Source: Sphaerosporella brunnea (Eukaryota; Ascomycota; Pezizomycetes; Pezizales; Pyronemataceae). From it: a DNA stretch of 64,000 nt. Each line of letters opens with the position of its first letter. Position 1 is the stretch's first letter. Shown here piece after piece: positions 1-41,674 of the stretch. The notes beneath the pieces were generated by a model. That model was not told where the DNA came from. It searched no databases and saw only the letters and a list, made by a program, of their open reading frames with translations. The position numbers were made by a program, and so were the translations under genes. The DNA is taken from the NCBI GenBank assembly GCA_008704415.1, contig VXIS01000229.1, positions 1-64,000 on the forward strand, read 5' to 3'.

Positions 1-583
1 CAGTTACCCCGCATCAATCGAGGCGAAGCGAGGCGCTCCTCACGGTATTCAACATTTCAAAACGACAAGGGGAGAAGGTCATCAATAGAGTTGCCACTGG
101 GTGCCGTCGCCGGGGCAACTTGTGTTGTTTTTACAGGGATGTTTTTGTGTTTGTATTCTGCGTCCCGGTCGCGTCCCGGTCGCGTCTCGGGCGGGCTTCA
201 GGTGTTTTTCTTTTTTGTAATTTTCCAACATACTCTACAATACATAAGAATTCGAAGCACCTGTATATGAGGACCACCAAAAAGCTGTTGCTATTTAGAC
301 GAAACATATCAAATGTACCTCAGTCGATGAGATTGGTTCGTTGAAAATAGACGGGTTCAGTGGGCGGGCGCTGGGCATTCTGGGTTTGACTCGAAATATT
401 TGATGTTGCCTAAGTTGTGTATACCTCTTTTCAATAGCGACGACCTTCCCGGAGCCGAGCCGAATGCTTGAGTTCGGGAAGTCCGCATTGAGCTCGAAAT
501 CAGTCGTGAACTGGTCCGGAACCAGATGACACATCTGCCGTGAAAAAAATAAAAAAAATTGCTCAGCTGCATCTAGCTCTCTG

Positions 584-1126
584 CAAAAGCCACTACAAGG
601 CGCAACGATCCCGAACCAACCGCGTAGCGGCCAAGGCCCCTAAGGCGATTGCCTGACGCTTCTTCCAGCTGAGACTAAACAAGGCCATACCTGTTATGGA
701 CCAACAGGAGGACGGATGGCAAGTGCTGGTGGTGCGGGCAAGGTGCTATACAAACCCGCAGCCATCTCTTCAAGTTCTGCAAGAGGTGGAAGGCCGAGCA
801 GATGGTGCTGTGGAAAGCAATAAAGGATGCCATCAAGGATGGTGGAGGTATGAAGCGCTGGCCGTCCACTTCGGTGGTCGACCTGCTGGCGGCTGACAGA
901 TGCACGGCAGTCTTGGATTACCTTCGTGCTGCAAAGATTGGCTGCTGGCCCGATAAGCGCGACATGTAATGACTCTTCCTCCTTTTTCCTTTGTTGGTCC
1001 TCCTTGGTGCGTTTACTTTACCTGGTGCGATTCCCTTCCCGGTGGGTAGCATAGTCTCTTCTTTCTCCATATGTCATGGCCGCAAGCGGCCGAATACAAC
1101 ATGATTAAAACAAAACAAAAACAAAG
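584..1126 (+). mobile_element. 5'-truncated Tad-like LINE (left arm copy)
   Basis: The 11-bp target duplication ctagctctctg flanks the insertion at 573-583 and 1127-1137. It ends in an A-rich tail (attaaaacaaaacaaaaac). The coding part, ending with a stop at 967-969, encodes the end of a fungal LINE ORF2: a CWWCG zinc-knuckle start, a conserved HLFKFCKRWK segment, and a C-terminus finishing in PDKRDM. One frameshift near 690-700 separates the upstream FFQLRLNKA segment from the zinc knuckle. The 3' UTR contains the palindromic sequence ggccgcaagcggcc, shared with the LINE copies at 27683 and 54694. It has a mirror copy in the right arm, so it inserted before the palindrome formed. Confidence 0.85.
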
Positions 1127-1161
1127 CTAGCTCTCTGGAATACTATATAGGATGAGTTCCA

Positions 1162-1377
1162 CCCTACTTTTCTTCTTCTGCCTTCTCCTATTAGCAGGCC
1201 ACTGATGCCCCGGTCGCAGCTCTGCCTGGAAAACCCGACGTGAACTGATAGGTATGCATGCAATGCATGCCCTACTCTTCTTCTTCTGCCTTCTCCTATT
1301 AGCAGGCCACTGATGCCCCGGTCGCAGCTCTGCCTCGAAAACCCGACGTGAACTGATAGGTATGCATGCAACGCATG
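1162..1377. repeat. 108-bp direct tandem duplication (left arm)
   Basis: Units 1162-1269 and 1270-1377 differ at only a few positions. Each holds a TTCTTCTGCC pyrimidine tract, a CCCGGTCGCAGCTCTGCC segment and a palindromic ATGCATGCAA end. It lies just beyond the LINE insertion and has a mirror copy at 21190-21405. No coding role is visible. Confidence 0.85.
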
Positions 1378-4300
1378 CAAGCGCTCTCAACAGCTGGCCA
1401 GGCAGCAATGACGTTGTGCACTCCTGATCACTGGAGATTCCGTCTTTCCACACAAACGGGGACGCAAAGGGTCAAAGCAAAGGGTCAAAGAAAAGAGTCT
1501 TGCTAAGGCGGGGGGAGGAATCTTCGGCCGCCAAGGCTACGGGGACGGTCTTCACCGATGATCGGTGGTGTTAATTTGTTGAGGGAAGCAGGGTTGACAG
1601 ATCACATCTCACAAGCCCAATATGATCGTAACAGTTCAGACTGATGGGCTGAGACCTTTTGCTTTCACCTTTCAGGTTCCCTTTTGGATGGGCGGACAGG
1701 CTCTATTGCAGATGTCTGATTGCGGGAAGTTCTGGCTATCCTTCCATGTTTACATATGATGCGAACAGTCCTTTCGATATGTCTCAGCTTCACGCTCGAA
1801 AACGAGGCGGCCTGTCCCCGCCTGCAGCTAGATAAATTTCAACTTGTCATCACACCCAAAATGTTCTGCTCAAGTCTTACAGGGATTCCCTTTTTGATCA
1901 CACGGCATGTGTAGGTTTGGAGTAGAACACCACTTCGGCCTTAGGAACTACCTTAACGGTTCCAAGGGGATCAGGGCGTAGATCCCGCGGTGAAAACCAC
2001 GGCTACACCGACAACAGCTAAATGGACCTACTGTCCATATCCCAGCTCCAGCTCTCTTACAAGGGAACGAGATGGAAACAGTTAGAAAACTGAGCCGAGT
2101 GATTAAACATGAATTCAATCAACCACCCAGATTGACAGCAAGAGAAAATGGTTGCGGCACGGGTATTGTTGTGTAACTTAGAAGCACAGGCTAGCCGTTC
2201 AGAATAAATTAAACGACAAAAGACCGATAACTTGATGAATACAATGCAACATTCGCTACAAGGAATCTGATTCCACCCGCAATGTGGTTATCTGCACCCA
2301 CGAAGACCCAGCTGACAGGAGGAGAGCAGCGAGCGCGCCTTGCAGCATTTCAGGGAGCCCCGGAAAATATCACTGACGGCATATAACGGTGCTCTCGTTG
2401 CCATCAAGAAGGTCACAATGTATTCCGCTGCCGAGCCATCCCTGTGGAATTTTAAATACGGCGCGAGGTTTTGGTGAATTTCGGGGCAGGTATTTTGTAG
2501 ATAGATCTCTCGGAGCGCCCTATGTTGTATTGTAGCATATCTACCCACGTGAGCAAAAAGACTCCAAAACAAAAATGAGGCTTGTCCTACCCCAATTACA
2601 TCCAGGGACCCCCTAGTTTGCGGTCAAGACCCACCCCTCCACATCCACGTTGGACGCTGATGGGATTTATCAAGCAGCAAAATACCGTTTCTTTGGCTAA
2701 GCGGATAGAGACAGGTAAACGTGGAAGGGCGATCACTAAGTCAGATCGCGAGGGCAAAAATCCAGAATAGACTGGCCATCGGTTTTTTAATTCTTGAGTT
2801 TATGTTCTTAGCATTATTTTGATCCCTTGCTTGATTTTTGGACCACAATTGGTGGTCCCTTCCGCGTTCGTCTGGCACCCGGACTCTCTACTTACTCTAG
2901 GGTTGCAATTGTAGAAAGACCAGCCTCAGACGCATGCTCATGATCGGCTGATTATGGCTTTTGACTCCATCGAGGAGGTAGCACAATATAGGCTGTCAAT
3001 CATTTCGTCTTGCTATCGCGCGGGCCGCTTCCCATTTGTTGAAGGGTAACGGCGTCGTGGCTAGCCCCTTGTGGTGGTTCATCCTCGTGAGAAAAACAAA
3101 CTCTCGTAGAGAAGCATCCGGGATCAGTGCTTAGTAGGATGCCTGACAGTCTATTAGAGTGTGAATCATCCATCCACCAGTCCATAGCTATTATTTTTCA
3201 ACCGACATTTTTTGAACCGTCTTCCTGTTAGCCTCGTTGCTGAGCTTGCCTTGATGGTCAAAATCCACCAAATGTTTTCCGAGTAGCTAGGAGTTCTCGA
3301 TGTTGGATGGTTTTCAGCGTGTGTTTTTCTTCAGCAGTCCCTCGGAATAAATCGCTTTTCCAGCCAGCCCGACAGCCAGACCGCTTCAAGGAACCCTGCT
3401 CTGTCCATAAGCTCAATGTCGGCAGTCCCTGGCGAAAGTTCGCAACTTTTCTTGCCACCCACACCAATTTCTGTTGGAAAATGTTGACTGCATAACTGCA
3501 CATTCTCCGTCCCGCATTAAACTTCTCTTCCTGGCATAATTGTACGAGGCTGGGCTCAAAAGTCACCTAAAAAGTTTGGTTGCAATTATACTTGAAAATT
3601 TTACTAGAGCACCCCGTGGCGAGCAAGATTCGATCCCTACGTCATCTTGCTACTCATGCGAGCAAGGTGTCTCTTAAGTGAGTTAGTGATTTCTTATGTC
3701 TGTTTTGGGAAATTACGAGTGATTTCTAGTGAGGCGCAGCCGCAAGCATTTTTTCCGGCCCCGGTTTAAAGCGCCTTGCACCATAGTAGAAATATTTTTA
3801 CCAACGCTCCGGAAGAGCTTAAGAGCGAGCGCCATATTTAACGTCAATGTCGACATGGAGTTTCAAGCGTATTCGAGTCACCCAAACTCTCAGTGATTCG
3901 AGCTGGACCGGAGTTCTAGATAGTAGAGAGTTTGCGATTTGCATCCAGACGCAAATTTAAGCTGGCCAAGACTTCGGGTCACCGCCTGATTTTTGCGTCT
4001 AGACGCAAATCGCAAACTCTCTAGTAAGTTCGGTGTCTCTGACGTTGGGAATAACTCAGGGGTACTTGCCGCGGCGGCACAACACTACCATACTCTCGGT
4101 AGTCAGCACCCGTTATTCGGTAGAAGGAAGAGACTTCCGGAAACTCTCTGCTGCATATGCCTGCTGGACAAAAAGATGCTGCCCCGCCTCAGTCAGGTAG
4201 TGCTCAGTGGTTACAGCCCGCGGAACCGACTCGGGGTAATTCATATCCGCGTCGTCTTCACTTAGGAACCATCGAGGGTGGATTGCTTGTCAATACGGTG

Positions 4301-5690
4301 CTTTCGTCCAAAAGGGTTTAGCGTGATAGGGTAGTCGAGCACCGACGATATCCTTGGCTGCTTTTCTCTGGCCGCAAAGAGTTGGGATTTTTAAGTCTTG
4401 GGACACCTGAGAAACCCTAACCCAAAACCGAAAAGCGGAGAAAAATCGATATCTCCACTGGCTTTGCTCCAAAAATTGCGATTGCTGACTCAAAATTAAT
4501 GCGAAAGAGCCTTCGTCAGTTCTGGCAGTAAGATATTCAGCATTTATTTTTTCATTGTGACGATATCGTGTTTTGCGTTGCTGTTTTTTCGTGGGGCGCG
4601 CGTGGGTTAGGGGAACTGCGCCCTGCGCGCGTTATGCGCCCTTGCGCAACACTCGCTACTGCTCCTCTTGCGTTTGCTTTTCATAATTTGCGCTCTCTAC
4701 AATCCATCTACTCCTCTTTATCTACACATCTAGAGAGCCCTTTTCCGCTCTTTCTTGGTTGCCCGAACTCGTGAAGGATAACTCGACGATCCAGCCGAGA
4801 TTCATGGATCTCCCAGTCCCCCTGGCGGAATCCGTTCCTATGAGAGGTGGGATCATGATGATGCGATGCATGCCTTTGTTTCGACAGCGCACCTCACACT
4901 TTCAGCAGCTAATTCACCAACATGCCTCGCCGCCCTGGCCCAGAAATTTTCGCTGCTTTTTTGATTCTTGATGCACCTCCTGATAGAATAGTAAGTCCAA
5001 ACTACGAGGGCCTGATGGTGGGCATGAGGTTACGCGACGGGTCTTGGTGGGGCGGCGGGCGGGGGCGACGACGTCCAGAAAAGCTCAAAAAAAAACTCTT
5101 CCATAATTATGGGTACCAGTCAATAGCCCGCCGTTTTGCTGGCTTTTGAAGTCGCAGCCCGACCGGCTTTATCAGCTGTTGGATACAAGGAATAGAGACC
5201 TGCCCACCCAAAATGGAACGCAAATGGTGTCAGCAGCCCACATTAAGCTGAAGATGATCAAGATATACCACTAATACTAGTAGTTTAGACTGATGGTCTC
5301 TAATACAACATAAAAAAAACATAACCTTCGTTGAGTATCTTGGCGCCAAGCACGAACGAGCGAACCTCTCGGATGCCACAAACCTGACCACACGGCCAAC
5401 GAAACTGAGCAAGTCAAGATGGATGCGCGCTTCACACACTCTGCGGAAATCATGCACTCTACTTGTGTTTACGTAACAATGCAGTAAGCGCCAAGCATTG
5501 GCACTAGGTACTCTAGAGTTAGCCTCATTCAATGCTCTAGTGCAAGCCTCCTCCGCAGAGCCGCATACGTTTTCGGTTGCACCATCCCAACTGGCACCTT
5601 CGCCCTGTTACAGCCTGCATCACCCCAAACGCGTCGACAACATAAAACCACAAATCGAATCAACAGCACGAAAACTCAACACCCGCAACG
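1378..5690. other. Intergenic stretch of left arm
   Basis: About 4.3 kb with no recognisable gene. Only short unrelated open frames occur, none with a known motif or plausible splicing. It contains the MITE at 3926-4021 and the 5' flank of the Acinus-like gene. The last bases before the start codon (about 5560-5690) are pyrimidine- and A-rich, as in a fungal promoter or leader. Confidence 0.6.
3926..4021. mobile_element. 96-bp MITE with TAGTA target duplication
   Basis: Near-perfect terminal inverted repeats of about 30 bp start GAGAGTTTGCGATTTGC and end with the complement. TAGTA flanks both sides (3921-3925 and 4022-4026). Each terminal repeat itself contains a smaller inverted repeat around TCTAGA (right end) or TCCAGA (left end). 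There is no coding capacity. TA-type duplication fits a Tc1/mariner-like mobiliser, but the family is not identified. The same element is mirrored at 18533-18628. Confidence 0.75.
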
Positions 5691-7883
5691 ATGGCGATCG
5701 ATCCCGATAATGTAATGTCGCTAAAAGTCACTGAGCTGCGCGCTGAGCTCAAGGCCCGCGGCCTGCCCGGCAAGGGACTCAAGCAGGAGCTGGCAGACAG
5801 GCTGAGGGAGGCGTTGTTGGCGGAGCGCGCAAAAGAGGAGAAGGAGGGCGCAGCTCAGGAGGAAGCTGTGGAGGGGGAGGAGGAGGGGAAATCGACAGAG
5901 GAGGAGGAATCGACAGAGCAGGAGCAGGAAGCGGCTGAAGAGATAAAGGAGAGCGCCCCCAATGACGCGACAGTTACCCGCGAAGAAGCTTCTCCGGAAG
6001 TTGCGAAACCAGTTCCAGAACCTTCGGTCGAGCTTGTGCCTAAGGTCGAAGCTCTTGAGGCCCTACCAGTACCGCCCACGCATGAAGACTCTGCTGCGCA
6101 AGAACAAGCGAAAGAGGACGAGAACTTGAAACCGGTCACCGAAGTACCAACCAAGGAGCAAGCGGAGCCGATCGTAGAAGCTTTACAAGAAGAAGGAGAA
6201 GCGGAGCTTGCGCCGGAGCCGGAAGCTGAGGGAGTCAGCCACGCGGAGCCGATCGTAGAAGCTCCGCAAGGAGAAGAAGCGAAGCTTGCGCCGGAGCCGG
6301 AAATTGAGGGAGTCAGCCACGCGGAGCCGATCGCAGAAGCTCCGCAAGAACAAGAAGCGAAGCTTGCGCCGGAGCCGGAAGTTGAGGGAGTCAGCCACGC
6401 GGAGCCGATCGTAGAAGCTCCGCAAGGAGAAGAAGCGAAGCTTGCGCCGGAGCCGGAAATTGAGGGAGTCAGCCACGCGGAGCCGATCGTAGAAGCTCCG
6501 CAAGAAGAAGAAGCGAAGCTTGCGCCGGAGCCGGAAGCTGAGGAAGTCAGCCACGCGAAGCCTGTGTCTGCGCCAGAAGACAAGATGCCAACCCCCACTG
6601 CCGAACCCGAAAAGGTCCCTGCCGAACCGTTGTCGTCGCCTGTCGTGCCCGCAGAATCGCGCGATATTGAAATGCAGTCGCCGCCGCAGGAACAACTGCC
6701 CTCTGCAGAAGTCATGGAACCGAAGGAGCCAATCGCAATGGAAGCCCCTCAGTCAGAGGAACCTACCATGGCGAAGCCTGTGGACACCACCCCTACGGTC
6801 CCTACCGAAGCTGTCTCCGACGCTCTCACGACCGACGATGTACAAGCCATGGATGTCGATACCACCGACACGCTGAAGCGCAAACGCCGTTCCACGAGCC
6901 CCGTACCTCACGAGGGTTTACGTGAGCACGACCCCGAAGTTGTGCCAGAAGCCGAAGAAGAATCCGTCCCCACCGCCAAAAAGCACCGCGCCGAATCTCC
7001 AGCTCGTCGTGGCCGTGACGCGCGCTTTAAAGGCCTCTTCAACGACACCCACGCGACCACCGAGCAGGATCTCGATGACGCTGCCAACGACGAAGATGAG
7101 GCTCCGATCGAGCCTTCTATCCACCCTGCTACGCGTGCCCTCTACATCCGCAACCTTGTGAGACCGCTTCATGAACCCAATCTTCGGAATCATGTGCTCT
7201 CGCTTGCTACGCGCAGCGATGAAGAGCCTGTGGACTCCAGCATCGAATCCTTTTACCTAGATAGTATCAAGAGTCATGCGTTGATTGTGTTTGAGAGCAC
7301 TGCTGCGGCTACCCGCGTTCGTGTTGGTATCCACAACAAGGTGTTCCCGCCTGAGAAGACCAGAAAACCTCTTTGGGCCGATTTCGTCCCGGAGGAGAGA
7401 GTTGCAGAGTGGGTTGAGCGCGAGAAGGCGCGCGGCATGGGAGGAAGATGGGAAGTCGTCTACGATGATGTCGATGGAGAGATTTTGGCCGAGCTTGTGG
7501 AGGCTGGTATGGGAAGCGCTGGCGGCAGACTAGCTCGACGAATGGGAGCTATCGGTGGAAAGGCCCCTACAGCCGCTCCGCCGGCTAGACCCAAAGGCAG
7601 TATCGATATTTCGAACGCCCCTTCCGGCTCGAGAAAGGAAAGCGAACGTATGTTTTCTGGCCCCGAGACTGTGGGGAATGTGGCTGACACAGGTGCAGCT
7701 GGCGTTTATGTTCCCCCACCCATGAACAGCAAGCCAACCGAACGTCGGGCCAAGGTTATGGATCTCGACCAGCTGTTCCGCAGCACGCGGACCAAGCCGA
7801 AGCTCTACTATCTTCCAGTGGACCCCGAGATCGCGAAAGAGCGGCTAAGGAAGCAGGGCCGGGACTCAAAGGGCAGATACTGA
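5691..7883 (+). CDS. Acinus-like SAP/RRM/RSB protein (intact copy)
   Basis: A 730-residue single-exon protein. A SAP DNA/RNA-binding domain lies at about residues 8-42 (SLKVTELRAELKARGLPGKG). It is followed by a long acidic, Pro/Glu-rich region with five 26-residue repeats and a basic KRKRR patch. An RRM-like domain starts near residue 483 (RNP2-like LYIRNL, RNP1-like HALIVFES). Near residue 690, DLDQLFRSTRTKPKLYYLP matches the RSB motif that binds RNPS1 and SAP18 in Acinus proteins. The order SAP, RRM-like, RSB is that of Acinus, the scaffold of the nuclear ASAP complex acting in splicing and exon-junction biology. The start was chosen because the SAP domain follows directly. The mirror copy at 14671-16863 is broken. 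No symbol is given because fungal orthologues are seldom named. Confidence 0.85.
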   Translation: MAIDPDNVMSLKVTELRAELKARGLPGKGLKQELADRLREALLAERAKEEKEGAAQEEAVEGEEEGKSTEEEESTEQEQEAAEEIKESAPNDATVTREEASPEVAKPVPEPSVELVPKVEALEALPVPPTHEDSAAQEQAKEDENLKPVTEVPTKEQAEPIVEALQEEGEAELAPEPEAEGVSHAEPIVEAPQGEEAKLAPEPEIEGVSHAEPIAEAPQEQEAKLAPEPEVEGVSHAEPIVEAPQGEEAKLAPEPEIEGVSHAEPIVEAPQEEEAKLAPEPEAEEVSHAKPVSAPEDKMPTPTAEPEKVPAEPLSSPVVPAESRDIEMQSPPQEQLPSAEVMEPKEPIAMEAPQSEEPTMAKPVDTTPTVPTEAVSDALTTDDVQAMDVDTTDTLKRKRRSTSPVPHEGLREHDPEVVPEAEEESVPTAKKHRAESPARRGRDARFKGLFNDTHATTEQDLDDAANDEDEAPIEPSIHPATRALYIRNLVRPLHEPNLRNHVLSLATRSDEEPVDSSIESFYLDSIKSHALIVFESTAAATRVRVGIHNKVFPPEKTRKPLWADFVPEERVAEWVEREKARGMGGRWEVVYDDVDGEILAELVEAGMGSAGGRLARRMGAIGGKAPTAAPPARPKGSIDISNAPSGSRKESERMFSGPETVGNVADTGAAGVYVPPPMNSKPTERRAKVMDLDQLFRSTRTKPKLYYLPVDPEIAKERLRKQGRDSKGRY
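6162..6551 (+). repeat. Five 78-bp coding repeats in the Acinus-like gene
   Basis: Five tandem 78-bp units each encode a 26-residue acidic block of the form HAEPIVEAPQGEEAKLAPEP plus a short linker. Units differ by few substitutions and keep frame, so they arose by recent in-frame expansion. The region is predicted to be disordered. All five units are retained in the right-arm copy. Confidence 0.9.
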
Positions 7884-8183
7884 TGGCTATTGCATGATTC
7901 TCTTTGTGCTGGCTTCGTAATGTACAGTGGTGTATTCTAGACGGTGGGATAGGCTGGCACGGGGTTTACTGTCTTCTACGCGTTTTCTTCTGGCACTGCA
8001 TTCCACATACTTTCGTTTTCTCTGCGTGACGAGAAATCGCCGGGTGTTGCCGACACTCAATCTCGGCAAACCCCGCCAACCGACACGTGCTTTTATTTAA
8101 CCCGCCCCGCGTCTTCTCTCCGCCCCACAACCGCTCCCCCACAATCTACCCATCACCAGCACCACCGCGAAAAAGTCGCCACG

Positions 8184-9004
8184 ATGTCGGCCCTCCGTAT
8201 CCTCGTCCCCATAAAGCGCGTCCTCGACTATGCCATCAAGCCGCGCATCGCGGCTTCCGGCAAGGCCATCGACCTCACGGGACAGAAGATGTCGCTCAAC
8301 CCCTTCGACGAGCTGTCAATTGAAGCCTCAGTTCGGCTCCGTGAAGAGCACAAGACCCGCATCGAAGACATCCTTGCCTTCTCCGCTGGCCCCCAGAAGT
8401 CCCAGGACGCGTTGCGCACGGCGATGGCCATGGGCGCGGACCGCGGCCTGCTGGTCGACACGGCAACTACGGAACTCGAGCCCCTTGCCGTCGCAAAGAT
8501 CCTGAAGCGGGTCGTTGAGAAGGAAAAGTCAAATCTCGTCATACTTGGAAAGCAGAGTATCGATGACGATGCGGGACAGACGGGACAGATGCTTGCTGGC
8601 TTGCTGGGGTGGGGACAGGCAACCCAGGCGGCGGATATCAAGTTGGAGGGTGACACAGTCACTGTGGTTAAGGAGGTTGATGGCGGTACCGAAACCGTTA
8701 AGGGAAAGCTGCCGATGGTCGTTACGACTGATCTGAGACTTAACGAACCCCGATATGCGAGCTTGCCGAATATTATGAAGGCGAAGAAGAAGAAGCTGGA
8801 GCAGATTCCGCTGAAGGATTATGGAGAGGGATTGGAGGGACGCTTGGAGGTTTTGCAGCTTGTTGGTTAGTACACCCCCGAGGAAGCCGCGGAAGGAGGC
8901 GAGAAACTGATTGTGTTGCAGAGCCCCCTCCACGCCAGGGCGGCGGAAAGGTCGCGGATGTCAGTGGAATGATCTCAAAACTGAAGGAGCTCGGTGCTCT
9001 TTAA
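8184..9004 (+). CDS. Electron transfer flavoprotein subunit beta
   Basis: Two exons, 8184-8865 and 8922-9004, joined across a 56-bp intron (GT at 8866, CAG ending 8921, branch site ACTGAT). They give 254 residues, close to the roughly 255 of human ETFB. The family start RILVPIKRV, the NPFDELSIEASVRL segment, the ILGKQSIDDDAGQTGQMLAG stretch that contacts AMP/FAD in the ETF fold, and the RYASLPNIMKAKKK segment are all present. The intron restores the conserved Lys-rich tail (GGGKVADVSGMISKLKELGA). The protein is the mitochondrial matrix partner of ETF-alpha, passing electrons from acyl-CoA and amino-acid dehydrogenases to ETF-ubiquinone oxidoreductase. The gene lies 300 bp downstream of the Acinus-like gene, same strand, and has an identical mirror copy. 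Confidence 0.95.
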
Positions 9005-11277
9005 GCGCGTTAGACGCTGTGGCCTGTAGATGATGATGGAGTAGTGTATGCATATCGGGTGTACGAAGTACAAATAGAAGAGTCTTTGCACGCATTCTAA
9101 ACTGCTTGACAAGCCCATCCGTCGGCCATGGCCACAGCGCGCTGCATATATTCTGCTTACATAATCCCTAAAACCGCTAGGAGCTGGGAGGCATCGCCAC
9201 AGTTGGTTTTCCCACCGACCTCCCTCAACAGGATCTAGCTCTCCGGAGACTGGGAGGAGCAGCAAAGCGCCGAGCCTGAGGCAGCCGCCGCCGGTTCGAC
9301 GCTGCGCTCAGGGCAACCATGAGCATGTAGTTAGCCGAGGGTGATATCCTCCGGCGACGCACCGCCACATGCACAGGGCGGTCTTCCATCCACCTGAACT
9401 CCTAGCCCTCTAAGAGTAGCTCACCACTCGCCGTTAGATTTACGTGGATGCTGGTAGATGTGATTGAGATAAGATGAGATAAGGCTGAGTTTGGCGCAGC
9501 GTATCGAGTACTCTGGTAAGCCAACCTTGTCTCCGGCCATGGAAACTCCGCAGCCCCAGCTCCACTACCGCTCACGACGTCTGCCGAAGCGCGCCATCAC
9601 CTCCCGTCACGACTAGGTCGAGTACATGTGTCGCCATCATCCGAGCCTGAAACCCCGCGAAATCGTCGGTACGTGGACGAATATGCTCACGAGCATCACG
9701 AACTGTTCAAATCCGAAATGCTGCTCCAAAAATCGTCGCATGTGCACTCGTGAGCTTCTCAGGGCCTACCACAAAAAGGATCGTTTCGCTCGGGAACTTT
9801 ATGCTCTCTAAGCGATCTTATGTTCGCTTTGGGCTGGTCGCGTTGGAATGGCACTTTTCAGGCGAGACGTTGCTTCGCAAACGACCTTCATGCTCGTTTG
9901 TACTGTGGTGCCCAGCCTATCCACACGTCCGACACGGCCCTGATACACCTCTGATTGTGTTCACGGGGTCGCTCCTCGGATAAAGCTATTGCCGAGGAAC
10001 TTTTCAAACGCTCGTTGCTCCGGCCTCCGCATCCACACGATAAATTCTAATTCGATTGTAACACCGCAAAAGAAAACCGTCCATCCCCAGCCGCCTAAGA
10101 CGCCTCGGGAATCTAGTCTTTTGGTTATAGTGCCAAGGCACAACGCGCGGCGCGGCGGGGCGCCCAGGGCCTTCGGCCGCCCACCAACCATATCGGCGAT
10201 CGCTGAAGGTGATGCGATTCCGGTTGTCAGTGGGTGGGTCTTCCCTTGTCGGCATCGTCAACTCTGGCTATGGCCATGGTCAACCTCAGGCTGACCGGTG
10301 GATCGCCAGTGCGCATGCGTACGCACATGCGTACGCACATGCGCCCGCCCAGCAGAGCGCGGAATCAGGTTCGGCGACCGAATCTGACTCCCAACGCCGA
10401 CATTCCGGTCCGGTAGATGATGTTAAACAGTTGAGGCAACTGCTAGGGTTTCTGGTATATATGCACTGCACCTAGCAAGCATTGTTGGATAATGGACTGA
10501 ACAGACGTCATTGCGGAGTGTATCGAGGCTTTCGGAAGCTGGTTGTAGAGGTCCTCGGATGATGACGATGACGCATTCATTAACTTTTGAATGTATCGCA
10601 AACGAAAGGTGTTCCGAATGGGAACGTTGCCACACTTCCAAGACTCGCTGATAGTCCCTAAGATGTGTTTTTTTTTTTTCACTTGCCTGTATACTCTGCT
10701 TGTGCTGTGATTTACGTCGGGTAGAGGGAAATATAAAGCAGTGTGCAGTTTGCGGATGTATGTGTGATTCCTCTCGTGCAGCGTACAGTAGGACATGTTT
10801 CTTTTGTCGACTTGGCTGGCAATGTTGATGTAGGCAGTGGTGATCGCGTATTACTCTACTTTCTGTGGCCAATCAGAACCGGCCCGTGTCTAGTACTACC
10901 TGTGTCTCGAGGGTTCAACGTATTCCTACGCATGCGCAGATGCCGCCATGAGTTACATGCGTTCATTAGCGTGGCTTCCCGTGGATAAAACTCCAGTTCG
11001 TGCACCATCACTGGTGAAGGCCGATACACTCGCTCTATTCAGTTTTTTTTTTTTTTTTTAATCGTCTGGAACGCAGATTTATCTAAGCACTGTCTGGAGG
11101 CTCCGAAACCTCCAGTGCGAAAAAAAACTTAATTCCTGACGAGTTGCACAGCAGCTTAATGCAAGTGATATAGTGACACGGGGCACCGGGGGGAACGGCT
11201 GTGCGTGGAAAAGCCCTAACCCAACGGTCGACGTCGTTTCTTGAAGATGAAACCAGCTGGAAAAAGGAAAGCCTTCT
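9005..11277. other. Non-coding stretch up to the palindrome axis (left)
   Basis: No recognisable gene. It holds short tandem ACGCACATGCGT-type units near 10310-10340, a T run near 10667-10679, and a T17 run at 11043-11059 close to the axis. Open frames present are duplicated in mirror image and show no family motif. Confidence 0.55.
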
Positions 11278-11284
11278 AGAAGGC
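11271..11284. other. Axis of the giant palindrome
   Basis: The self-complementary core gccttctagaaggc has its centre between 11277 and 11278. The arms pair directly with no loop or spacer, and complementarity continues outward in both directions. A spacer-free axis is unusual for a stable chromosomal palindrome and resembles a fold-back template-switch junction. Confidence 0.95.
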
Positions 11285-13549: not shown

Positions 13550-14370
13550 TTAAAGAGCACCGAGCTCCTTCAGTTTTGAGATCATTCCACTGACATCCGC
13601 GACCTTTCCGCCGCCCTGGCGTGGAGGGGGCTCTGCAACACAATCAGTTTCTCGCCTCCTTCCGCGGCTTCCTCGGGGGTGTACTAACCAACAAGCTGCA
13701 AAACCTCCAAGCGTCCCTCCAATCCCTCTCCATAATCCTTCAGCGGAATCTGCTCCAGCTTCTTCTTCTTCGCCTTCATAATATTCGGCAAGCTCGCATA
13801 TCGGGGTTCGTTAAGTCTCAGATCAGTCGTAACGACCATCGGCAGCTTTCCCTTAACGGTTTCGGTACCGCCATCAACCTCCTTAACCACAGTGACTGTG
13901 TCACCCTCCAACTTGATATCCGCCGCCTGGGTTGCCTGTCCCCACCCCAGCAAGCCAGCAAGCATCTGTCCCGTCTGTCCCGCATCGTCATCGATACTCT
14001 GCTTTCCAAGTATGACGAGATTTGACTTTTCCTTCTCAACGACCCGCTTCAGGATCTTTGCGACGGCAAGGGGCTCGAGTTCCGTAGTTGCCGTGTCGAC
14101 CAGCAGGCCGCGGTCCGCGCCCATGGCCATCGCCGTGCGCAACGCGTCCTGGGACTTCTGGGGGCCAGCGGAGAAGGCAAGGATGTCTTCGATGCGGGTC
14201 TTGTGCTCTTCACGGAGCCGAACTGAGGCTTCAATTGACAGCTCGTCGAAGGGGTTGAGCGACATCTTCTGTCCCGTGAGGTCGATGGCCTTGCCGGAAG
14301 CCGCGATGCGCGGCTTGATGGCATAGTCGAGGACGCGCTTTATGGGGACGAGGATACGGAGGGCCGACAT
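13550..14370 (-). CDS. Electron transfer flavoprotein subunit beta (mirror copy)
   Basis: Exact mirror of the left-arm gene. Exon 1 is 13689-14370, the intron 13633-13688 and exon 2 13550-13632, encoding the same 254 residues with the same splice signals. Both copies keep intact frames, so if the palindrome is real the strain carries two functional copies converging on the axis. No divergence between copies was seen, so the duplication is very recent or artificial. Confidence 0.93.
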
Positions 14371-14670
14371 CGTGGCGACTTTTTCGCGGTGGTGCTGGTG
14401 ATGGGTAGATTGTGGGGGAGCGGTTGTGGGGCGGAGAGAAGACGCGGGGCGGGTTAAATAAAAGCACGTGTCGGTTGGCGGGGTTTGCCGAGATTGAGTG
14501 TCGGCAACACCCGGCGATTTCTCGTCACGCAGAGAAAACGAAAGTATGTGGAATGCAGTGCCAGAAGAAAACGCGTAGAAGACAGTAAACCCCGTGCCAG
14601 CCTATCCCACCGTCTAGAATACACCACTGTACATTACGAAGCCAGCACAAAGAGAATCATGCAATAGCCA

Positions 14671-16863
14671 TCAGTATCTGCCCTTTGAGTCCCGGCCCTG
14701 CTTCCTTAGCCGCTCTTTCGCGATCTCGGGGTCCACTGGAAGATAGTAGAGCTTCGGCTTGGTCCGCGTGCTGCGGAACAGCTGGTCGAGATCCATAACC
14801 TTGGCCCGACGTTCGGTTGGCTTGCTGTTCATGGGTGGGGGAACATAAACGCCAGCTGCACCTGTGTCAGCCACATTCCCCACAGTCTCGGGGCCAGAAA
14901 ACATACGTTCGCTTTCCTTTCTCGAGCCGGAAGGGGCGTTCGAAATATCGATACTGCCTTTGGGTCTAGCCGGCGGAGCGGCTGTAGGGCCTTTCCACCG
15001 ATAGCTCCCATTCGTCGAGCTAGTCTGCCGCCAGCGCTTCCCATACCAGCCTCCACAAGCTCGGCCAAAATCTCTCCATCGACATCATCGTAGACGACTT
15101 CCCATCTTCCTCCCATGCCGCGCGCCTTCTCGCGCTCAACCCACTCTGCAACTCTCTCCTCCGGGACGAAATCGGCCCAAAGAGGTTTTCTGGTCTTCTC
15201 AGGCGGGAAACACCTTGTTGTGGATACCAACACGAACGCGGGTAGCCGCAGCAGTGCTCTCAAACACAATCAACGCATGACTCTTGATACTATCTAGGTA
15301 AAAGGATTCGATGCTGGAGTCCACAGGCTCTTCATCGCTGCGCGTAGCAAGCGAGAGCACATGATTCCGAAGATTGGGTTCATGAAGCGGTCTCACAAGG
15401 TTGCGGATGTAGAGGGCACGCGTAGCAGGGTGGATAGAAGGCTCGATCGGAGCCTCATCTTCGTCGTTGGCAGCGTCATCGAGATCCTGCTCGGTGGTCG
15501 CGTGGGTGTCGTTGAAGAGGCCTTTAAAGCGCGCGTCACGGCCACGACGAGCTGGAGATTCGGCGCGGTGCTTTTTGGCGGTGGGGACGGATTCTTCTTC
15601 GGCTTCTGGCACAACTTCGGGGTCGTGCTCACGTAAACCCTCGTGAGGTACGGGGCTCGTGGAACGGCGTTTGCGCTTCAGCGTGTCGGTGGTATCGACA
15701 TCCATGGCTTGTACATCGTCGGTCGTGAGAGCGTCGGAGACAGCTTCGGTAGGGACCGTAGGGGTGGTGTCCACAGGCTTCGCCATGGTAGGTTCCTCTG
15801 ACTGAGGGGCTTCCATTGCGATTGGCTCCTTCGGTTCCATGACTTCTGCAGAGGGCAGTTGTTCCTGCGGCGGCGACTGCATTTCAATATCGCGCGATTC
15901 TGCGGGCACGACAGGCGACGACAACGGTTCGGCAGGGACCTTTTCGGGTTCGGCAGTGGGGGTTGGCATCTTGTCTTCTGGCGCAGACACAGGCTTCGCG
16001 TGGCTGACTTCCTCAGCTTCCGGCTCCGGCGCAAGCTTCGCTTCTTCTTCTTGCGGAGCTTCTACGATCGGCTCCGCGTGGCTGACTCCCTCAATTTCCG
16101 GCTCCGGCGCAAGCTTCGCTTCTTCTCCTTGCGGAGCTTCTACGATCGGCTCCGCGTGGCTGACTCCCTCAACTTCCGGCTCCGGCGCAAGCTTCGCTTC
16201 TTGTTCTTGCGGAGCTTCTGCGATCGGCTCCGCGTGGCTGACTCCCTCAATTTCCGGCTCCGGCGCAAGCTTCGCTTCTTCTCCTTGCGGAGCTTCTACG
16301 ATCGGCTCCGCGTGGCTGACTCCCTCAGCTTCCGGCTCCGGCGCAAGCTCCGCTTCTCCTTCTTCTTGTAAAGCTTCTACGATCGGCTCCGCTTGCTCCT
16401 TGGTTGGTACTTCGGTGACCGGTTTCAAGTTCTCGTCCTCTTTCGCTTGTTCTTGCGCAGCAGAGTCTTCATGCGTGGGCGGTACTGGTAGGGCCTCAAG
16501 AGCTTCGACCTTAGGCACAAGCTCGACCGAAGGTTCTGGAACTGGTTTCGCAACTTCCGGAGAAGCTTCTTCGCGGGTAACTGTCGCGTCATTGGGGGCG
16601 CTCTCCTTTATCTCTTCAGCCGCTTCCTGCTCCTGCTCTGTCGATTCCTCCTCCTCTGTCGATTTCCCCTCCTCCTCCCCCTCCACAGCTTCCTCCTGAG
16701 CTGCGCCCTCCTTCTCCTCTTTTGCGCGCTCCGCCAACAACGCCTCCCTCAGCCTGTCTGCCAGCTCCTGCTTGAGTCCCTTGCCGGGCAGGCCGCGGGC
16801 CTTGAGCTCAGCGCGCAGCTCAGTGACTTTTAGCGACATTACATTATCGGGATCGATCGCCAT
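14671..16863 (-). pseudogene. Acinus-like gene, right-arm copy broken by two frameshifts
   Basis: Mirror of 5691-7883. An extra T in the coding strand (AAA at 15208-15210 on the plus strand) follows the codons for HNKVF and ends the protein at 554 residues. A missing C (GGG at 14987-14989, against four on the left) then returns the rest to the original frame. The truncated product keeps the SAP domain, the five repeats and most of the RRM-like domain, but loses the RSB motif that docks RNPS1/SAP18. Both changes are in homopolymers, so base-calling error is as likely as real inactivation. Confidence 0.85.
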
Positions 16864-18532
16864 CGTTGCGGGTGTTGAGTTTTCGTGCTGTTGATTCGAT
16901 TTGTGGTTTTATGTTGTCGACGCGTTTGGGGTGATGCAGGCTGTAACAGGGCGAAGGTGCCAGTTGGGATGGTGCAACCGAAAACGTATGCGGCTCTGCG
17001 GAGGAGGCTTGCACTAGAGCATTGAATGAGGCTAACTCTAGAGTACCTAGTGCCAATGCTTGGCGCTTACTGCATTGTTACGTAAACACAAGTAGAGTGC
17101 ATGATTTCCGCAGAGTGTGTGAAGCGCGCATCCATCTTGACTTGCTCAGTTTCGTTGGCCGTGTGGTCAGGTTTGTGGCATCCGAGAGGTTCGCTCGTTC
17201 GTGCTTGGCGCCAAGATACTCAACGAAGGTTATGTTTTTTTTATGTTGTATTAGAGACCATCAGTCTAAACTACTAGTATTAGTGGTATATCTTGATCAT
17301 CTTCAGCTTAATGTGGGCTGCTGACACCATTTGCGTTCCATTTTGGGTGGGCAGGTCTCTATTCCTTGTATCCAACAGCTGATAAAGCCGGTCGGGCTGC
17401 GACTTCAAAAGCCAGCAAAACGGCGGGCTATTGACTGGTACCCATAATTATGGAAGAGTTTTTTTTTGAGCTTTTCTGGACGTCGTCGCCCCCGCCCGCC
17501 GCCCCACCAAGACCCGTCGCGTAACCTCATGCCCACCATCAGGCCCTCGTAGTTTGGACTTACTATTCTATCAGGAGGTGCATCAAGAATCAAAAAAGCA
17601 GCGAAAATTTCTGGGCCAGGGCGGCGAGGCATGTTGGTGAATTAGCTGCTGAAAGTGTGAGGTGCGCTGTCGAAACAAAGGCATGCATCGCATCATCATG
17701 ATCCCACCTCTCATAGGAACGGATTCCGCCAGGGGGACTGGGAGATCCATGAATCTCGGCTGGATCGTCGAGTTATCCTTCACGAGTTCGGGCAACCAAG
17801 AAAGAGCGGAAAAGGGCTCTCTAGATGTGTAGATAAAGAGGAGTAGATGGATTGTAGAGAGCGCAAATTATGAAAAGCAAACGCAAGAGGAGCAGTAGCG
17901 AGTGTTGCGCAAGGGCGCATAACGCGCGCAGGGCGCAGTTCCCCTAACCCACGCGCGCCCCACGAAAAAACAGCAACGCAAAACACGATATCGTCACAAT
18001 GAAAAAATAAATGCTGAATATCTTACTGCCAGAACTGACGAAGGCTCTTTCGCATTAATTTTGAGTCAGCAATCGCAATTTTTGGAGCAAAGCCAGTGGA
18101 GATATCGATTTTTCTCCGCTTTTCGGTTTTGGGTTAGGGTTTCTCAGGTGTCCCAAGACTTAAAAATCCCAACTCTTTGCGGCCAGAGAAAAGCAGCCAA
18201 GGATATCGTCGGTGCTCGACTACCCTATCACGCTAAACCCTTTTGGACGAAAGCACCGTATTGACAAGCAATCCACCCTCGATGGTTCCTAAGTGAAGAC
18301 GACGCGGATATGAATTACCCCGAGTCGGTTCCGCGGGCTGTAACCACTGAGCACTACCTGACTGAGGCGGGGCAGCATCTTTTTGTCCAGCAGGCATATG
18401 CAGCAGAGAGTTTCCGGAAGTCTCTTCCTTCTACCGAATAACGGGTGCTGACTACCGAGAGTATGGTAGTGTTGTGCCGCCGCGGCAAGTACCCCTGAGT
18501 TATTCCCAACGTCAGAGACACCGAACTTACTA

Positions 18533-18628
18533 GAGAGTTTGCGATTTGCGTCTAGACGCAAAAATCAGGCGGTGACCCGAAGTCTTGGCCAGCTTAAATT
18601 TGCGTCTGGATGCAAATCGCAAACTCTC
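18533..18628. mobile_element. 96-bp MITE, mirror copy
   Basis: Reverse-complement copy of the element at 3926-4021, including its TAGTA-type flanks (18528-18532 and 18629-18633, reading TACTA on the plus strand). It was duplicated with the arm and is not an independent insertion. Confidence 0.75.
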
Positions 18629-20327
18629 TACTATCTAGAACTCCGGTCCAGCTCGAATCACTGAGAGTTTGGGTGACTCGAATACGCTTGAAACTCCATG
18701 TCGACATTGACGTTAAATATGGCGCTCGCTCTTAAGCTCTTCCGGAGCGTTGGTAAAAATATTTCTACTATGGTGCAAGGCGCTTTAAACCGGGGCCGGA
18801 AAAAATGCTTGCGGCTGCGCCTCACTAGAAATCACTCGTAATTTCCCAAAACAGACATAAGAAATCACTAACTCACTTAAGAGACACCTTGCTCGCATGA
18901 GTAGCAAGATGACGTAGGGATCGAATCTTGCTCGCCACGGGGTGCTCTAGTAAAATTTTCAAGTATAATTGCAACCAAACTTTTTAGGTGACTTTTGAGC
19001 CCAGCCTCGTACAATTATGCCAGGAAGAGAAGTTTAATGCGGGACGGAGAATGTGCAGTTATGCAGTCAACATTTTCCAACAGAAATTGGTGTGGGTGGC
19101 AAGAAAAGTTGCGAACTTTCGCCAGGGACTGCCGACATTGAGCTTATGGACAGAGCAGGGTTCCTTGAAGCGGTCTGGCTGTCGGGCTGGCTGGAAAAGC
19201 GATTTATTCCGAGGGACTGCTGAAGAAAAACACACGCTGAAAACCATCCAACATCGAGAACTCCTAGCTACTCGGAAAACATTTGGTGGATTTTGACCAT
19301 CAAGGCAAGCTCAGCAACGAGGCTAACAGGAAGACGGTTCAAAAAATGTCGGTTGAAAAATAATAGCTATGGACTGGTGGATGGATGATTCACACTCTAA
19401 TAGACTGTCAGGCATCCTACTAAGCACTGATCCCGGATGCTTCTCTACGAGAGTTTGTTTTTCTCACGAGGATGAACCACCACAAGGGGCTAGCCACGAC
19501 GCCGTTACCCTTCAACAAATGGGAAGCGGCCCGCGCGATAGCAAGACGAAATGATTGACAGCCTATATTGTGCTACCTCCTCGATGGAGTCAAAAGCCAT
19601 AATCAGCCGATCATGAGCATGCGTCTGAGGCTGGTCTTTCTACAATTGCAACCCTAGAGTAAGTAGAGAGTCCGGGTGCCAGACGAACGCGGAAGGGACC
19701 ACCAATTGTGGTCCAAAAATCAAGCAAGGGATCAAAATAATGCTAAGAACATAAACTCAAGAATTAAAAAACCGATGGCCAGTCTATTCTGGATTTTTGC
19801 CCTCGCGATCTGACTTAGTGATCGCCCTTCCACGTTTACCTGTCTCTATCCGCTTAGCCAAAGAAACGGTATTTTGCTGCTTGATAAATCCCATCAGCGT
19901 CCAACGTGGATGTGGAGGGGTGGGTCTTGACCGCAAACTAGGGGGTCCCTGGATGTAATTGGGGTAGGACAAGCCTCATTTTTGTTTTGGAGTCTTTTTG
20001 CTCACGTGGGTAGATATGCTACAATACAACATAGGGCGCTCCGAGAGATCTATCTACAAAATACCTGCCCCGAAATTCACCAAAACCTCGCGCCGTATTT
20101 AAAATTCCACAGGGATGGCTCGGCAGCGGAATACATTGTGACCTTCTTGATGGCAACGAGAGCACCGTTATATGCCGTCAGTGATATTTTCCGGGGCTCC
20201 CTGAAATGCTGCAAGGCGCGCTCGCTGCTCTCCTCCTGTCAGCTGGGTCTTCGTGGGTGCAGATAACCACATTGCGGGTGGAATCAGATTCCTTGTAGCG
20301 AATGTTGCATTGTATTCATCAAGTTAT

Positions 20328-20341
20328 CCCCCCCCCCCCCC
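20328..20341. repeat. C14 homopolymer present only in the right arm
   Basis: Fourteen C residues follow AAGTTAT, where the left arm has a single complementary base (ATAACTTGATG with one G, near 2226). This 13-base gain is the exact step by which the mirror coordinate sum changes from 22554 to 22567. Confidence 0.9.
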
Positions 20342-21189
20342 GGTCTTTTGTCGTTTAATTTATTCTGAACGGCTAGCCTGTGCTTCTAAGTTACACAACA
20401 ATACCCGTGCCGCAACCATTTTCTCTTGCTGTCAATCTGGGTGGTTGATTGAATTCATGTTTAATCACTCGGCTCAGTTTTCTAACTGTTTCCATCTCGT
20501 TCCCTTGTAAGAGAGCTGGAGCTGGGATATGGACAGTAGGTCCATTTAGCTGTTGTCGGTGTAGCCGTGGTTTTCACCGCGGGATCTACGCCCTGATCCC
20601 CTTGGAACCGTTAAGGTAGTTCCTAAGGCCGAAGTGGTGTTCTACTCCAAACCTACACATGCCGTGTGATCAAAAAGGGAATCCCTGTAAGACTTGAGCA
20701 GAACATTTTGGGTGTGATGACAAGTTGAAATTTATCTAGCTGCAGGCGGGGACAGGCCGCCTCGTTTTCGAGCGTGAAGCTGAGACATATCGAAAGGACT
20801 GTTCGCATCATATGTAAACATGGAAGGATAGCCAGAACTTCCCGCAATCAGACATCTGCAATAGAGCCTGTCCGCCCATCCAAAAGGGAACCTGAAAGGT
20901 GAAAGCAAAAGGTCTCAGCCCATCAGTCTGAACTGTTACGATCATATTGGGCTTGTGAGATGTGATCTGTCAACCCTGCTTCCCTCAACAAATTAACACC
21001 ACCGATCATCGGTGAAGACCGTCCCCGTAGCCTTGGCGGCCGAAGATTCCTCCCCCCGCCTTAGCAAGACTCTTTTCTTTGACCCTTTGCTTTGACCCTT
21101 TGCGTCCCCGTTTGTGTGGAAAGACGGAATCTCCAGTGATCAGGAGTGCACAACGTCATTGCTGCCTGGCCAGCTGTTGAGAGCGCTTG

Positions 21190-21405
21190 CATGCGTTGCA
21201 TGCATACCTATCAGTTCACGTCGGGTTTTCGAGGCAGAGCTGCGACCGGGGCATCAGTGGCCTGCTAATAGGAGAAGGCAGAAGAAGAAGAGTAGGGCAT
21301 GCATTGCATGCATACCTATCAGTTCACGTCGGGTTTTCCAGGCAGAGCTGCGACCGGGGCATCAGTGGCCTGCTAATAGGAGAAGGCAGAAGAAGAAAAG
21401 TAGGG
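21190..21405. repeat. 108-bp tandem duplication, mirror copy
   Basis: Reverse complement of 1162-1377, both units retained. Confidence 0.8.
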
Positions 21406-21440
21406 TGGAACTCATCCTATATAGTATTCCAGAGAGCTAG

Positions 21441-21983
21441 CTTTGTTTTTGTTTTGTTTTAATCATGTTGTATTCGGCCGCTTGCGGCCATGACATATGG
21501 AGAAAGAAGAGACTATGCTACCCACCGGGAAGGGAATCGCACCAGGTAAAGTAAACGCACCAAGGAGGACCAACAAAGGAAAAAGGAGGAAGAGTCATTA
21601 CATGTCGCGCTTATCGGGCCAGCAGCCAATCTTTGCAGCACGAAGGTAATCCAAGACTGCCGTGCATCTGTCAGCCGCCAGCAGGTCGACCACCGAAGTG
21701 GACGGCCAGCGCTTCATACCTCCACCATCCTTGATGGCATCCTTTATTGCTTTCCACAGCACCATCTGCTCGGCCTTCCACCTCTTGCAGAACTTGAAGA
21801 GATGGCTGCGGGTTTGTATAGCACCTTGCCCGCACCACCAGCACTTGCCATCCGTCCTCCTGTTGGTCCATAACAGGTATGGCCTTGTTTAGTCTCAGCT
21901 GGAAGAAGCGTCAGGCAATCGCCTTAGGGGCCTTGGCCGCTACGCGGTTGGTTCGGGATCGTTGCGCCTTGTAGTGGCTTTTG
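21441..21983 (-). mobile_element. 5'-truncated Tad-like LINE (right arm copy)
   Basis: Mirror of the insertion at 584-1126, with the same target duplication and the same zinc-knuckle C-terminus of ORF2. The shared frameshift shows that decay began before the arm was duplicated. Confidence 0.82.
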
Positions 21984-22342
21984 CAGAGAGCTAGATGCAG
22001 CTGAGCAATTTTTTTTATTTTTTTCACGGCAGATGTGTCATCTGGTTCCGGACCAGTTCACGACTGATTTCGAGCTCAATGCGGACTTCCCGAACTCAAG
22101 CATTCGGCTCGGCTCCGGGAAGGTCGTCGCTATTGAAAAGAGGTATACACAACTTAGGCAACATCAAATATTTCGAGTCAAACCCAGAATGCCCAGCGCC
22201 CGCCCACTGAACCCGTCTATTTTCAACGAACCAATCTCATCGACTGAGGTACATTTGATATGTTTCGTCTAAATAGCAACAGCTTTTTGGTGGTCCTCAT
22301 ATACAGGTGCTTCGAATTCTTATGTATTGTAGAGTATGTTGG

Positions 22343-22369
22343 AAAAAAAAAAAAAAAAAAAAAAAAAAA
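22343..22369. repeat. A27 homopolymer, A4 in the left arm
   Basis: Twenty-seven A residues follow ATGTTGG. The left arm carries only four T residues at the matching site (GTAATTTTCCAAC, near 225). It lies near the outer end of the recognised palindrome. Confidence 0.9.
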
Positions 22370-22588
22370 TTACAAAAAAGAAAAACACCTGAAGCCCGCC
22401 CGAGACGCGACCGGGACGCGACCGGGACGCAGAATACAAACACAAAAACATCCCTGTAAAAACAACACAAGTTGCCCCGGCGACGGCACCCAGTGGCAAC
22501 TCTATTGATGACCTTCTCCCCTTGTCGTTTTGAAATGTTGAATACCGTGAGGAGCGCCTCGCTTCGCCTCGATTGATGCGGGGAACTG

Positions 22589-23548
22589 GGGCCGCATCGT
22601 AATTTTCTTTGTGGTTTCTATGACAGGTCCACATCCTTCGACAAGCTTCTGCATTGTAAGTCAGCATGTGCATGTGCACGTGTATAGATGGGACCGCAAG
22701 AAGTCGGGGAGAACCAACGCGTGCCCTTTGCTGAGCTCCTCTAAGACCTGGGGCGTTGTGATCCCTTCTCCTAGTTGTCGAAGGGCGTTTTCAAGTCTCT
22801 GGTTGAGGCGGCCAGTCCTTCGAAACCAGTTTTTCAGGTTTTGAATATCACCCCCCCTGCCAATTTTTATAGCCACAGGCATGGCCTGGGCTAGGAGAGT
22901 GTCCGTTGTGGTGTTCATTTCGCTTTGCAGTTGGAGATGACAGTGAAAATTTTGCAAGAGAGGAACGCTGGAATGCTCATGAACAGAGGCTTCGAGGGAA
23001 TGACAGCCGCCGTAGACAAGAATTTAAAGGCCCACCGTAATCGTACGCGAGTAAGGGCCAGCCATATGCATCGAATCGCACGCTAGGACCGTGCGTAAAT
23101 ACTGGCTCAGCACCGGCTGGAAGCGGGGCAAGCACCGCATGCCAAACTAGCACAAGTTCACAGGTTTGTACTGTTGTAGAGCGCAGGCCTTGGCATCCAT
23201 ATCTCCCGTCCACAACGAAGACTGCTAGAGTATCCGCGCTCAGAGCTTCCTAGTCAATTGACAGGTTGTGGAGACTCAGACGCGTACGCAAAATCTGCTG
23301 CTCTTGGGTTCTCTCCTCATCTTCGTTCCTCTCTGGACAAAGTGTTGAATTGGCTCTGGAGTAAGCGGTGGATCCGTATGTGGGTTGCCGGAGTCAGAAA
23401 AAATTCCATCGCTCTGGATACACATCTGTCAGGAAAAAGGGGGTTAACGCAAAAGGAATAAGAAATCGTTGGCAATAAACGCTGAAAAAAGCTCTAAATC
23501 GCCAAAAAAACAATCGCATTTATTGTTTCCTTCTTGTTCATGAAGTAA
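22589..23548. other. Unique DNA beyond the right arm, one unexplained open frame
   Basis: Mirror symmetry can be followed to 22588, which pairs with window base 1; what follows has no counterpart in the window. A minus-strand open frame at 22661-22957 encodes a 98-residue peptide with a helical, basic segment (NWFRRTGRLNQRLENALRQL). I do not recognise it. No other gene is evident up to the patatin stop codon. Confidence 0.4.
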
Positions 23549-41557: not shown

Positions 41558-41674
41558 GCTACGGTCATAGAACACTGAAAGCACGGCTTCCCGTCCGCTC
41601 AGCCCTAGTTAAGCAGTGTATCGCGAGGTTAGTACTATGGTGGGTGACCACATGGGAATCCCTCGTACTGTAGT
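41558..41674 (+). rRNA. 5S ribosomal RNA gene
   Basis: About 117 nt. The core ggcttcccgtccgctcagcc, a TTAAGC internal promoter element, the GAGGTTAGTA segment and GGTGGGTGACCACATGGGAA match fungal 5S rRNA. The 5' CTACGGT pairs with the 3' ACTGTAG to close helix I. A run of five T follows directly, as a Pol III terminator. It is a single dispersed copy, as usual in Pezizomycotina. The ends are set by helix I and could differ by one or two bases. Confidence 0.9.

What the first reader, a model, noticed from the sequence alone, without database searches (positions are those of the whole stretch)
1..22588. A 22.6-kb near-perfect palindrome without a spacer
Two arms of about 11.3 kb, each with two genes, a LINE, a tandem repeat and a MITE, mirror each other around a 14-base self-complementary core. 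Spacer-free palindromes of this size are rarely stable in eukaryotic chromosomes, and near-zero divergence means it is very recent or artificial. If real, it could be an inverted duplication from a fold-back break repair, an isochromosome-like end, or a linear amplicon. If the window start is a contig start, an assembly hairpin is likely.
Basis: seen in the sequence. Interest (0 to 1): 0.9.

Follow-up and report, generated by a model that had tools for sequence, protein, structure and literature searches.

The report
Fold-back assembly artefact at contig end

Summary
Bases 1-22588 form a spacer-free palindrome, axis 11277|11278, with no substitutions and six indels between the arms, five in homopolymers. 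The window starts at base 1 of a 79,967-base contig, so the palindrome's left edge is simply the contig end. The contig belongs to the draft genome of the ectomycorrhizal fungus Sphaerosporella brunnea, made from PacBio low-input 10-kb libraries with Falcon, FinisherSC and Arrow. The arm length, 11.3 kb, is close to the nominal insert. Five other contigs begin with inverted duplications: C1, C3, C86, C622 and C640 (C86 and C622 seen in pieces). Of the six, five reach contig base 1; C3 stops about 525 bases short. Of 19 contig starts chosen by number, 3 carried one within the first 10 kb. The right arm has two compensating frameshifts in a gene that reads open in the left arm, which fits imperfect polishing. 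Verdict: a fold-back read artefact kept at a contig end, not a biological palindrome. No raw reads were available to prove it, and the interior control is small.

The parts
1..11277 (+). left (terminal) arm of the palindrome; its outer edge is contig base 1
11278..22588 (-). right arm, joined to unique sequence at 22589; likely the genomic copy (inference)
11277..11278 (.). axis; no spacer, 234 perfectly complementary bases on each side, no SMRTbell adapter remnant (best local score 14 of 90; adapter sequence recalled)
5691..7883 (+). gene with SAP domain and RSB motif, open frame of 730 aa in the left arm
15199..16863 (-). start of the same gene in the right arm; the frame breaks after 554 aa
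8181..8867 (+). ETF-domain coding stretch (electron transfer flavoprotein domain), left arm
13687..14373 (-). ETF-domain coding stretch, right arm, identical; no further copy reported in the assembly
640..1100 (+). dispersed repeat, probably the 3' end of a LINE (label from a recalled cysteine motif; no Pfam match)
21467..21927 (-). same dispersed repeat in the right arm
6162..6562 (+). 78-base tandem repeat inside the SAP gene, mirrored at 15992-16392

Best explanation
The palindrome is an artefact. A single long fragment from the fungus was read along one strand and then straight back along the other, giving a read of the form insert plus reverse complement (about 2 x 11.3 kb). The assembler accepted this read, or a few like it, as the end of a contig. 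The right arm and everything beyond 22588 is genomic; the left arm 1-11277 is a spurious reverse copy. Shown: the palindrome's presence in the file, its contact with contig base 1, and the recurrence of such structures in the assembly. Inferred: the origin in fold-back reads. Not resolved: whether those reads came from missed or absent SMRTbell adapters, hairpin-ended inserts, or whole-genome amplification. I favour a missed adapter or hairpin-ended insert for the spacer-free cases (C145, C622).
For: (1) The palindrome's outer edge is contig base 1. (2) No substitutions; 5 of 6 differences are homopolymer lengths, which look like consensus errors rather than mutations. (3) The right arm has two compensating frameshifts, the first in a stretch conserved in relatives; the left arm reads open and matches them. 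(4) Recurrence: inverted duplications open C1 (1-9490 / 9560-19017), C640 (1-3071 / 3608-6681) and C3 (528-13626), C622 (1-1999 mirrors 33141-35140; axis 17563|17564) and C86 (1-600 mirrors 14759-15355; central 1361 bases 98.7% self-complementary). C622 and C86 were predicted from mirror-placed, equal-scoring repeat hits, and both were confirmed. (5) In C3 the arm at the contig end has 220 gap runs against 34 in the other arm, as expected of a poorly covered arm. (6) The library was PacBio 'low-input' 10 kb, assembled with Falcon (PMC6908789, part 1 of 2 of the full text). [quoted passage not shown]
Against: No raw reads could be examined, so read support and depth are untested. Two other axes have spacers (about 69 bases in C1, 536 in C640), which a simple missed adapter does not give, and no adapter remnant was found at the four axes tested (C145, C1, C3, C640). 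Arm lengths vary from about 3 kb (C640) to 17.6 kb (C622), so only some match the 10-kb library; C622 exceeds it clearly. The interior control is small, and 5 of its 9 stretches come from C145 itself: 0 of 9 against 3 of 19 starts is not significant (Fisher p = 0.53). In C145 the terminal arm is not visibly worse than the right arm (3 against 3 gap runs), and in the SAP gene it is the terminal arm that reads open. The genome paper mentions neither amplification nor palindromes nor chimeras. On checking, I lowered this confidence from 0.95 to 0.9 because the three readings did not sum and the C622 arm length leaves more room for an assembler-made join.
Confidence: 0.9

Rival explanations
1. A rival inside the best explanation: the fold-back reads arose during whole-genome amplification in a low-input preparation, by template switching of the displaced strand, rather than from missed adapters. 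This is still an artefact, with another physical cause; its odds are a share of the 0.9 above.
For: 'Low-input' protocol; spacers of about 69 and 536 bases in C1 and C640 fit strand switching; high palindrome rates in amplified libraries.
Against: The paper does not mention amplification; C145 and C622 have no spacer.
Confidence: 0.4
2. A real inverted duplication in the fungus, such as a breakage-fusion-bridge product, isochromosome-like end or palindromic linear amplicon, with a contig that stops because reads cannot cross the arms.
For: A real long palindrome would also end a contig inside one arm; near-identical arms fit a very recent event.
Against: At least six such structures in one assembly, five of six reaching contig base 1; no run of three or more TTAGGG units in the 26 loci scanned; excess of gaps in one arm of C3.
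Confidence: 0.03
3. Assembler joining of a contig to its own reverse complement during graph traversal or FinisherSC extension, without any chimeric read.
For: FinisherSC was used to improve the assembly; some contig ends look redundant (equal-scoring hits in C150/C210, C434/C179 and C75/C421); the C622 arm of 17.6 kb is long for a 10-kb library.
Against: A join needs an overlap at the axis. The 601-base axis region here was found only in this contig, and C1 and C640 have spacers.
Confidence: 0.06

Closest known systems
Palindromic chimeric PacBio reads (whole-genome amplification; missed or missing SMRTbell adapters), as described with Pacasus, PMC6218980 (part 1 of 6 and passages seen)
   Same: Read followed by its own reverse complement; disturbs assembly; inverted duplications in contigs reported there
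   Different: Described there at read level and in assembly comparisons; here seen in a deposited assembly, at contig starts, after polishing, with the reads not examined
Biological fold-back inverted duplications and breakage-fusion-bridge palindromes (recalled)
   Same: Large arms mirrored about a short axis
   Different: Those belong to a locus with flanks; here the structure recurs at several contig starts and C145 has no left flank

Membership tests
Fold-back (palindromic) read artefact in an assembly | Outer edge of one arm coincides with the contig end | tested here: met
   Contig base 1; likewise C1, C640, C622, C86; C3 only to about base 525
Fold-back (palindromic) read artefact in an assembly | Arms differ by consensus-type errors, not mutations | tested here: met
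   0 substitutions, 5 of 6 indels in homopolymers
Fold-back (palindromic) read artefact in an assembly | Recurs at other places in the same assembly | tested here: met
   3 of 19 contig starts chosen by number, plus C622 and C86 picked by mirror-placed hits
Fold-back (palindromic) read artefact in an assembly | Confined to contig ends | tested here: inconclusive
   0 of 9 interior stretches (70 kb), but Fisher p = 0.53; of far ends only that of C145 was looked at
Fold-back (palindromic) read artefact in an assembly | Only fold-back reads cross the axis; normal depth in the arms | not testable with these tools
   No raw reads are held
Fold-back (palindromic) read artefact in an assembly | Adapter remnant at the axis (not a required feature; present in some cases, recalled) | tested here: not met
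   Best local score 24 of 90 at four axes, 14 at C145; C622 and C86 not tested; absence does not exclude a missing adapter
Biological fold-back inverted duplication | Unique flanks on both sides, or a telomere at one end | tested here: not met
   No left flank exists in the contig; no run of three or more TTAGGG units in the 26 loci scanned. A truncated contig could hide a flank
Biological fold-back inverted duplication | Doubled copy number of the arms in DNA of the organism | not testable with these tools
   Needs read depth or Southern blot

The most novel reading that the evidence does not exclude
Some nuclei of this S. brunnea strain carry real inverted duplications at many chromosome break ends, several without spacer, kept long enough to be sequenced. 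The contig starts would then record true fold-back fusions rather than library chimeras.
Probability: 0.03. Interest if true: 0.85.

Novelty: not a real feature. Interest (0 to 1): 0.07.

Why it matters
As biology it is very probably ordinary error. As a warning it is useful. At least six contigs of a public fungal genome open with inverted duplications that are very probably false. They duplicate genes: the SAP and ETF genes appear twice at this locus. They may also distort annotation: the deposited SAP protein (676 aa against 730 in the open left-arm frame) lacks two stretches that lie beside the right arm's two frameshifts, and a third that does not.

Tried and rejected
Telomere fusion or telomere-loss palindrome: GGGTTAGGG, 9 bases, lies about 60 bases from the axis, and C3 has a similar motif near its axis. 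The 8-base motif CCCTAACC occurs 19 times in 313,527 bases (the window and 30 of the loci held), twice the random rate, so I took it as incidental. No run of three or more units was seen in the 26 loci scanned.

Self-priming from a native hairpin at the axis: the arm end can form a 4-base-pair hairpin (RNA parameters), too small to argue from, and the native continuation past the axis was not found elsewhere in the assembly.

Adapter remnant at four of six axes: not found.

Paper searches with no hit: PacBio with palindromic and missed adapter, contig-end misassembly, JGI low-input amplification, fungal breakage-fusion-bridge palindromes, missed adapter with SMRTbell. One search listed 15 papers; by title and start of abstract none was to the point and none was opened. 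One search listed 6 papers, of which 2 were opened: PMC6218980 (part 1 of 6 and passages) and PMC8495745 (passages only; they give chimera rates and do not mention palindromic reads).

Repeat probes: read by eye, they showed me no mirror pair within one contig beyond the short inverted arms of the element itself; the lists are capped at 40 scored candidates.
Full report
OBSERVATION. The window is bases 1-64000 of contig C145, 79,967 bases long, in an assembly of 50,565,648 bases in 640 contigs. A reverse-complement self-match covers 1-22588 with no mismatches. The axis is 11277|11278, with 234 perfectly complementary bases on each side before the first indel. The arms differ by six indels and no substitutions over 11,274 aligned positions. 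Five of the six are homopolymer lengths (4 vs 27 T, 1 vs 14 G, three of one base); the sixth is a single A near base 6.

SOURCE. The SAP/RSB-motif gene of the arms hits a deposited protein, Sphaerosporella brunnea FN846DRAFT_911061, at 92% identity, on a contig whose length of 79,967 equals that of C145. The published genome was made from mycelium of a single spore, with PacBio low-input 10-kb libraries, Falcon 0.3.0, FinisherSC 2.1 and Arrow, at a stated depth of 907.91x. It reports 872 contigs and 51.6 Mb (PMC6908789, part 1 of 2 of the full text, which runs into the reference list). The copy held here has 640 contigs and 50.6 Mb, so it is not identical with the published count; I take it to be a reduced deposit of the same assembly (inference).

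COPIES. The axis region (11000-11600) and the boundary region (22000-23500) find only the two arms of this contig, and so does the ETF-domain coding stretch. I did not probe the rest of the arms as a whole. No contig was found that shows a different continuation at the axis. The dispersed repeat at 640-1100 has many diverged relatives (56 matches listed, only 40 of 567 candidates scored), and a 70-base piece at its end is commoner still (40 of 1032 candidates scored).

RECURRENCE. I took the first 10 kb of 19 other contigs, chosen by number only (C1-C5, C50, C140-C144, C146-C150, C300, C500, C640). Three of 19 held a large, near-identical inverted duplication: C1, C3 and C640. Further sequence showed C1 1-9490 mirrored by 9560-19017 (3 mismatches, 60 gap openings); C640 1-3071 by 3608-6681 (0 mismatches, 7 gap openings); and C3 528-13626 about its own centre at 95.1%. 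A 10-kb view misses axes lying further in, as in C145 and C622, so 3 of 19 is a lower bound. Shorter or more diverged inverted repeats in the other stretches were not counted: C142 (56 bases), C147 (80 bases), C150 (384 bases, 78%), C5 (170 bases), C50 (209 bases, 88%) and C500 (a 386-column self-complementary stretch, 78%).

PREDICTION. Repeat probes gave two more contigs with equal-scoring, opposite-strand hits in mirror positions, the only two besides C145 that I saw by eye in those lists: C622 and C86. Small fetches confirmed both. In C622, 1986 of the 2000 bases fetched about the centre are perfectly self-complementary, and bases 1-1999 mirror 33141-35140 at 99.95%, with axis 17563|17564. 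In C86 bases 1-600 mirror 14759-15355 at 93.6%, and the central 1361 bases are 98.7% self-complementary. The stretches between were not fetched in either contig. In all, six contigs including C145 open with such a structure; in five the terminal arm starts at contig base 1, and in C3 about 525 bases in.

CONTROLS. Nine interior stretches (four of 10 kb and L004 in C145; four of 5 kb in C1, C2, C3 and C640; 70 kb in all) held no inverted repeat beyond a 22-base one: 0 of 9. L005, the far end of C145, held only a 38-base one. This control is small; 3 of 19 against 0 of 9 gives Fisher p = 0.53. The argument rests on the coincidence of arm edges with contig base 1, not on this count.

CONSENSUS QUALITY. 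The SAP gene reads open for 730 aa in the left arm. In the right arm an extra T and, about 220 bases on, a missing C shift the frame between them. The left-arm reading through the first shift (VFPPEKTRKPLWADFVPEE) resembles the relatives: of 40 proteins looked at, out of 98, 37 show the motif searched; P0001, P0032 and P0033 do not. P0001, the deposited S. brunnea protein, lacks this stretch and a second one near the other shift. A gene model would do so by placing false introns over the frameshifts of the right arm; this is inference. Against it stands a third missing stretch (around RMFSGPETVGNVADTGAA; compare) that lies at no frameshift. Errors of this kind at the stated depth fit polishing that failed where reads map equally well to two places (inference). 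In C3 the terminal arm has 220 gap runs against 34 in the other arm, which points to thin support there. C1, C640 and C145 show no such imbalance of size (26/33, 5/2, 3/3).

MECHANISM. A read made of an insert followed by its reverse complement explains the lack of substitutions, an arm length near the nominal insert size, the contact with contig base 1 and the recurrence. Palindromic reads are documented for PacBio: 43.6% and 47.8% of reads in two amplified Arabidopsis sets, 11.8% in a gorilla set and 0.5% in an unamplified control (PMC6218980, part 1 of 6 read, passages). Falcon uses the longest reads as seeds (recalled), which at very high depth would favour such double-length reads. Spacer-free axes (C145, C622) fit missed or absent adapters or hairpin-ended inserts. 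Spacers of about 69 bases (C1) and 536 bases (C640) fit strand switching better. The C622 arm, 17.6 kb, is long for a 10-kb library. No adapter remnant was found at the four axes tested, with scores of at most 24 of 90 (adapter recalled). I cannot say which process dominated.

VERDICT. The palindrome is real in the file and very probably false in the fungus.

Noticed in passing
contigs C1 (1-19017), C3 (528-13626), C86 (1-15355), C622 (1-35140), C640 (1-6681) of the same assembly: Each opens with a large inverted duplication like that of C145 (C86 and C622 seen in pieces only); genes in these stretches may be counted twice.
   Followed up: partly
contigs C75 and C421, both 951-1375; C150:6900-7350 and C210:54045-54495; C434:7734-8172 and C179:260477-260915: Equal-scoring hits of one repeat probe in pairs of contigs, several near a contig start, suggest that some contig ends are redundant copies of each other.
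   Followed up: no
window 41557-41676: A complete 5S rRNA gene (Rfam RF00001, 103 bits) is the only Rfam match at gathering score in the window; it lies in the unique part of the contig.
   Followed up: no
window 14990-15210: The two frameshifts of the right arm in the SAP gene lie beside stretches missing from the deposited protein FN846DRAFT_911061, so that gene model is probably wrong; a third missing stretch is not explained this way.
   Followed up: partly
window 1046-1115 and 54692-54763: A 70-base repeat (40 matches listed; only 40 of 1032 candidates scored) overlaps the end of the LINE-like repeat at 640-1100 and is found at several of the same places, so it may be its 3' tail rather than a separate MITE.
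   Followed up: partly
window 45990-47482: A stretch of overlapping direct repeats, 77-86% alike, in the unique part of the contig.
   Followed up: no
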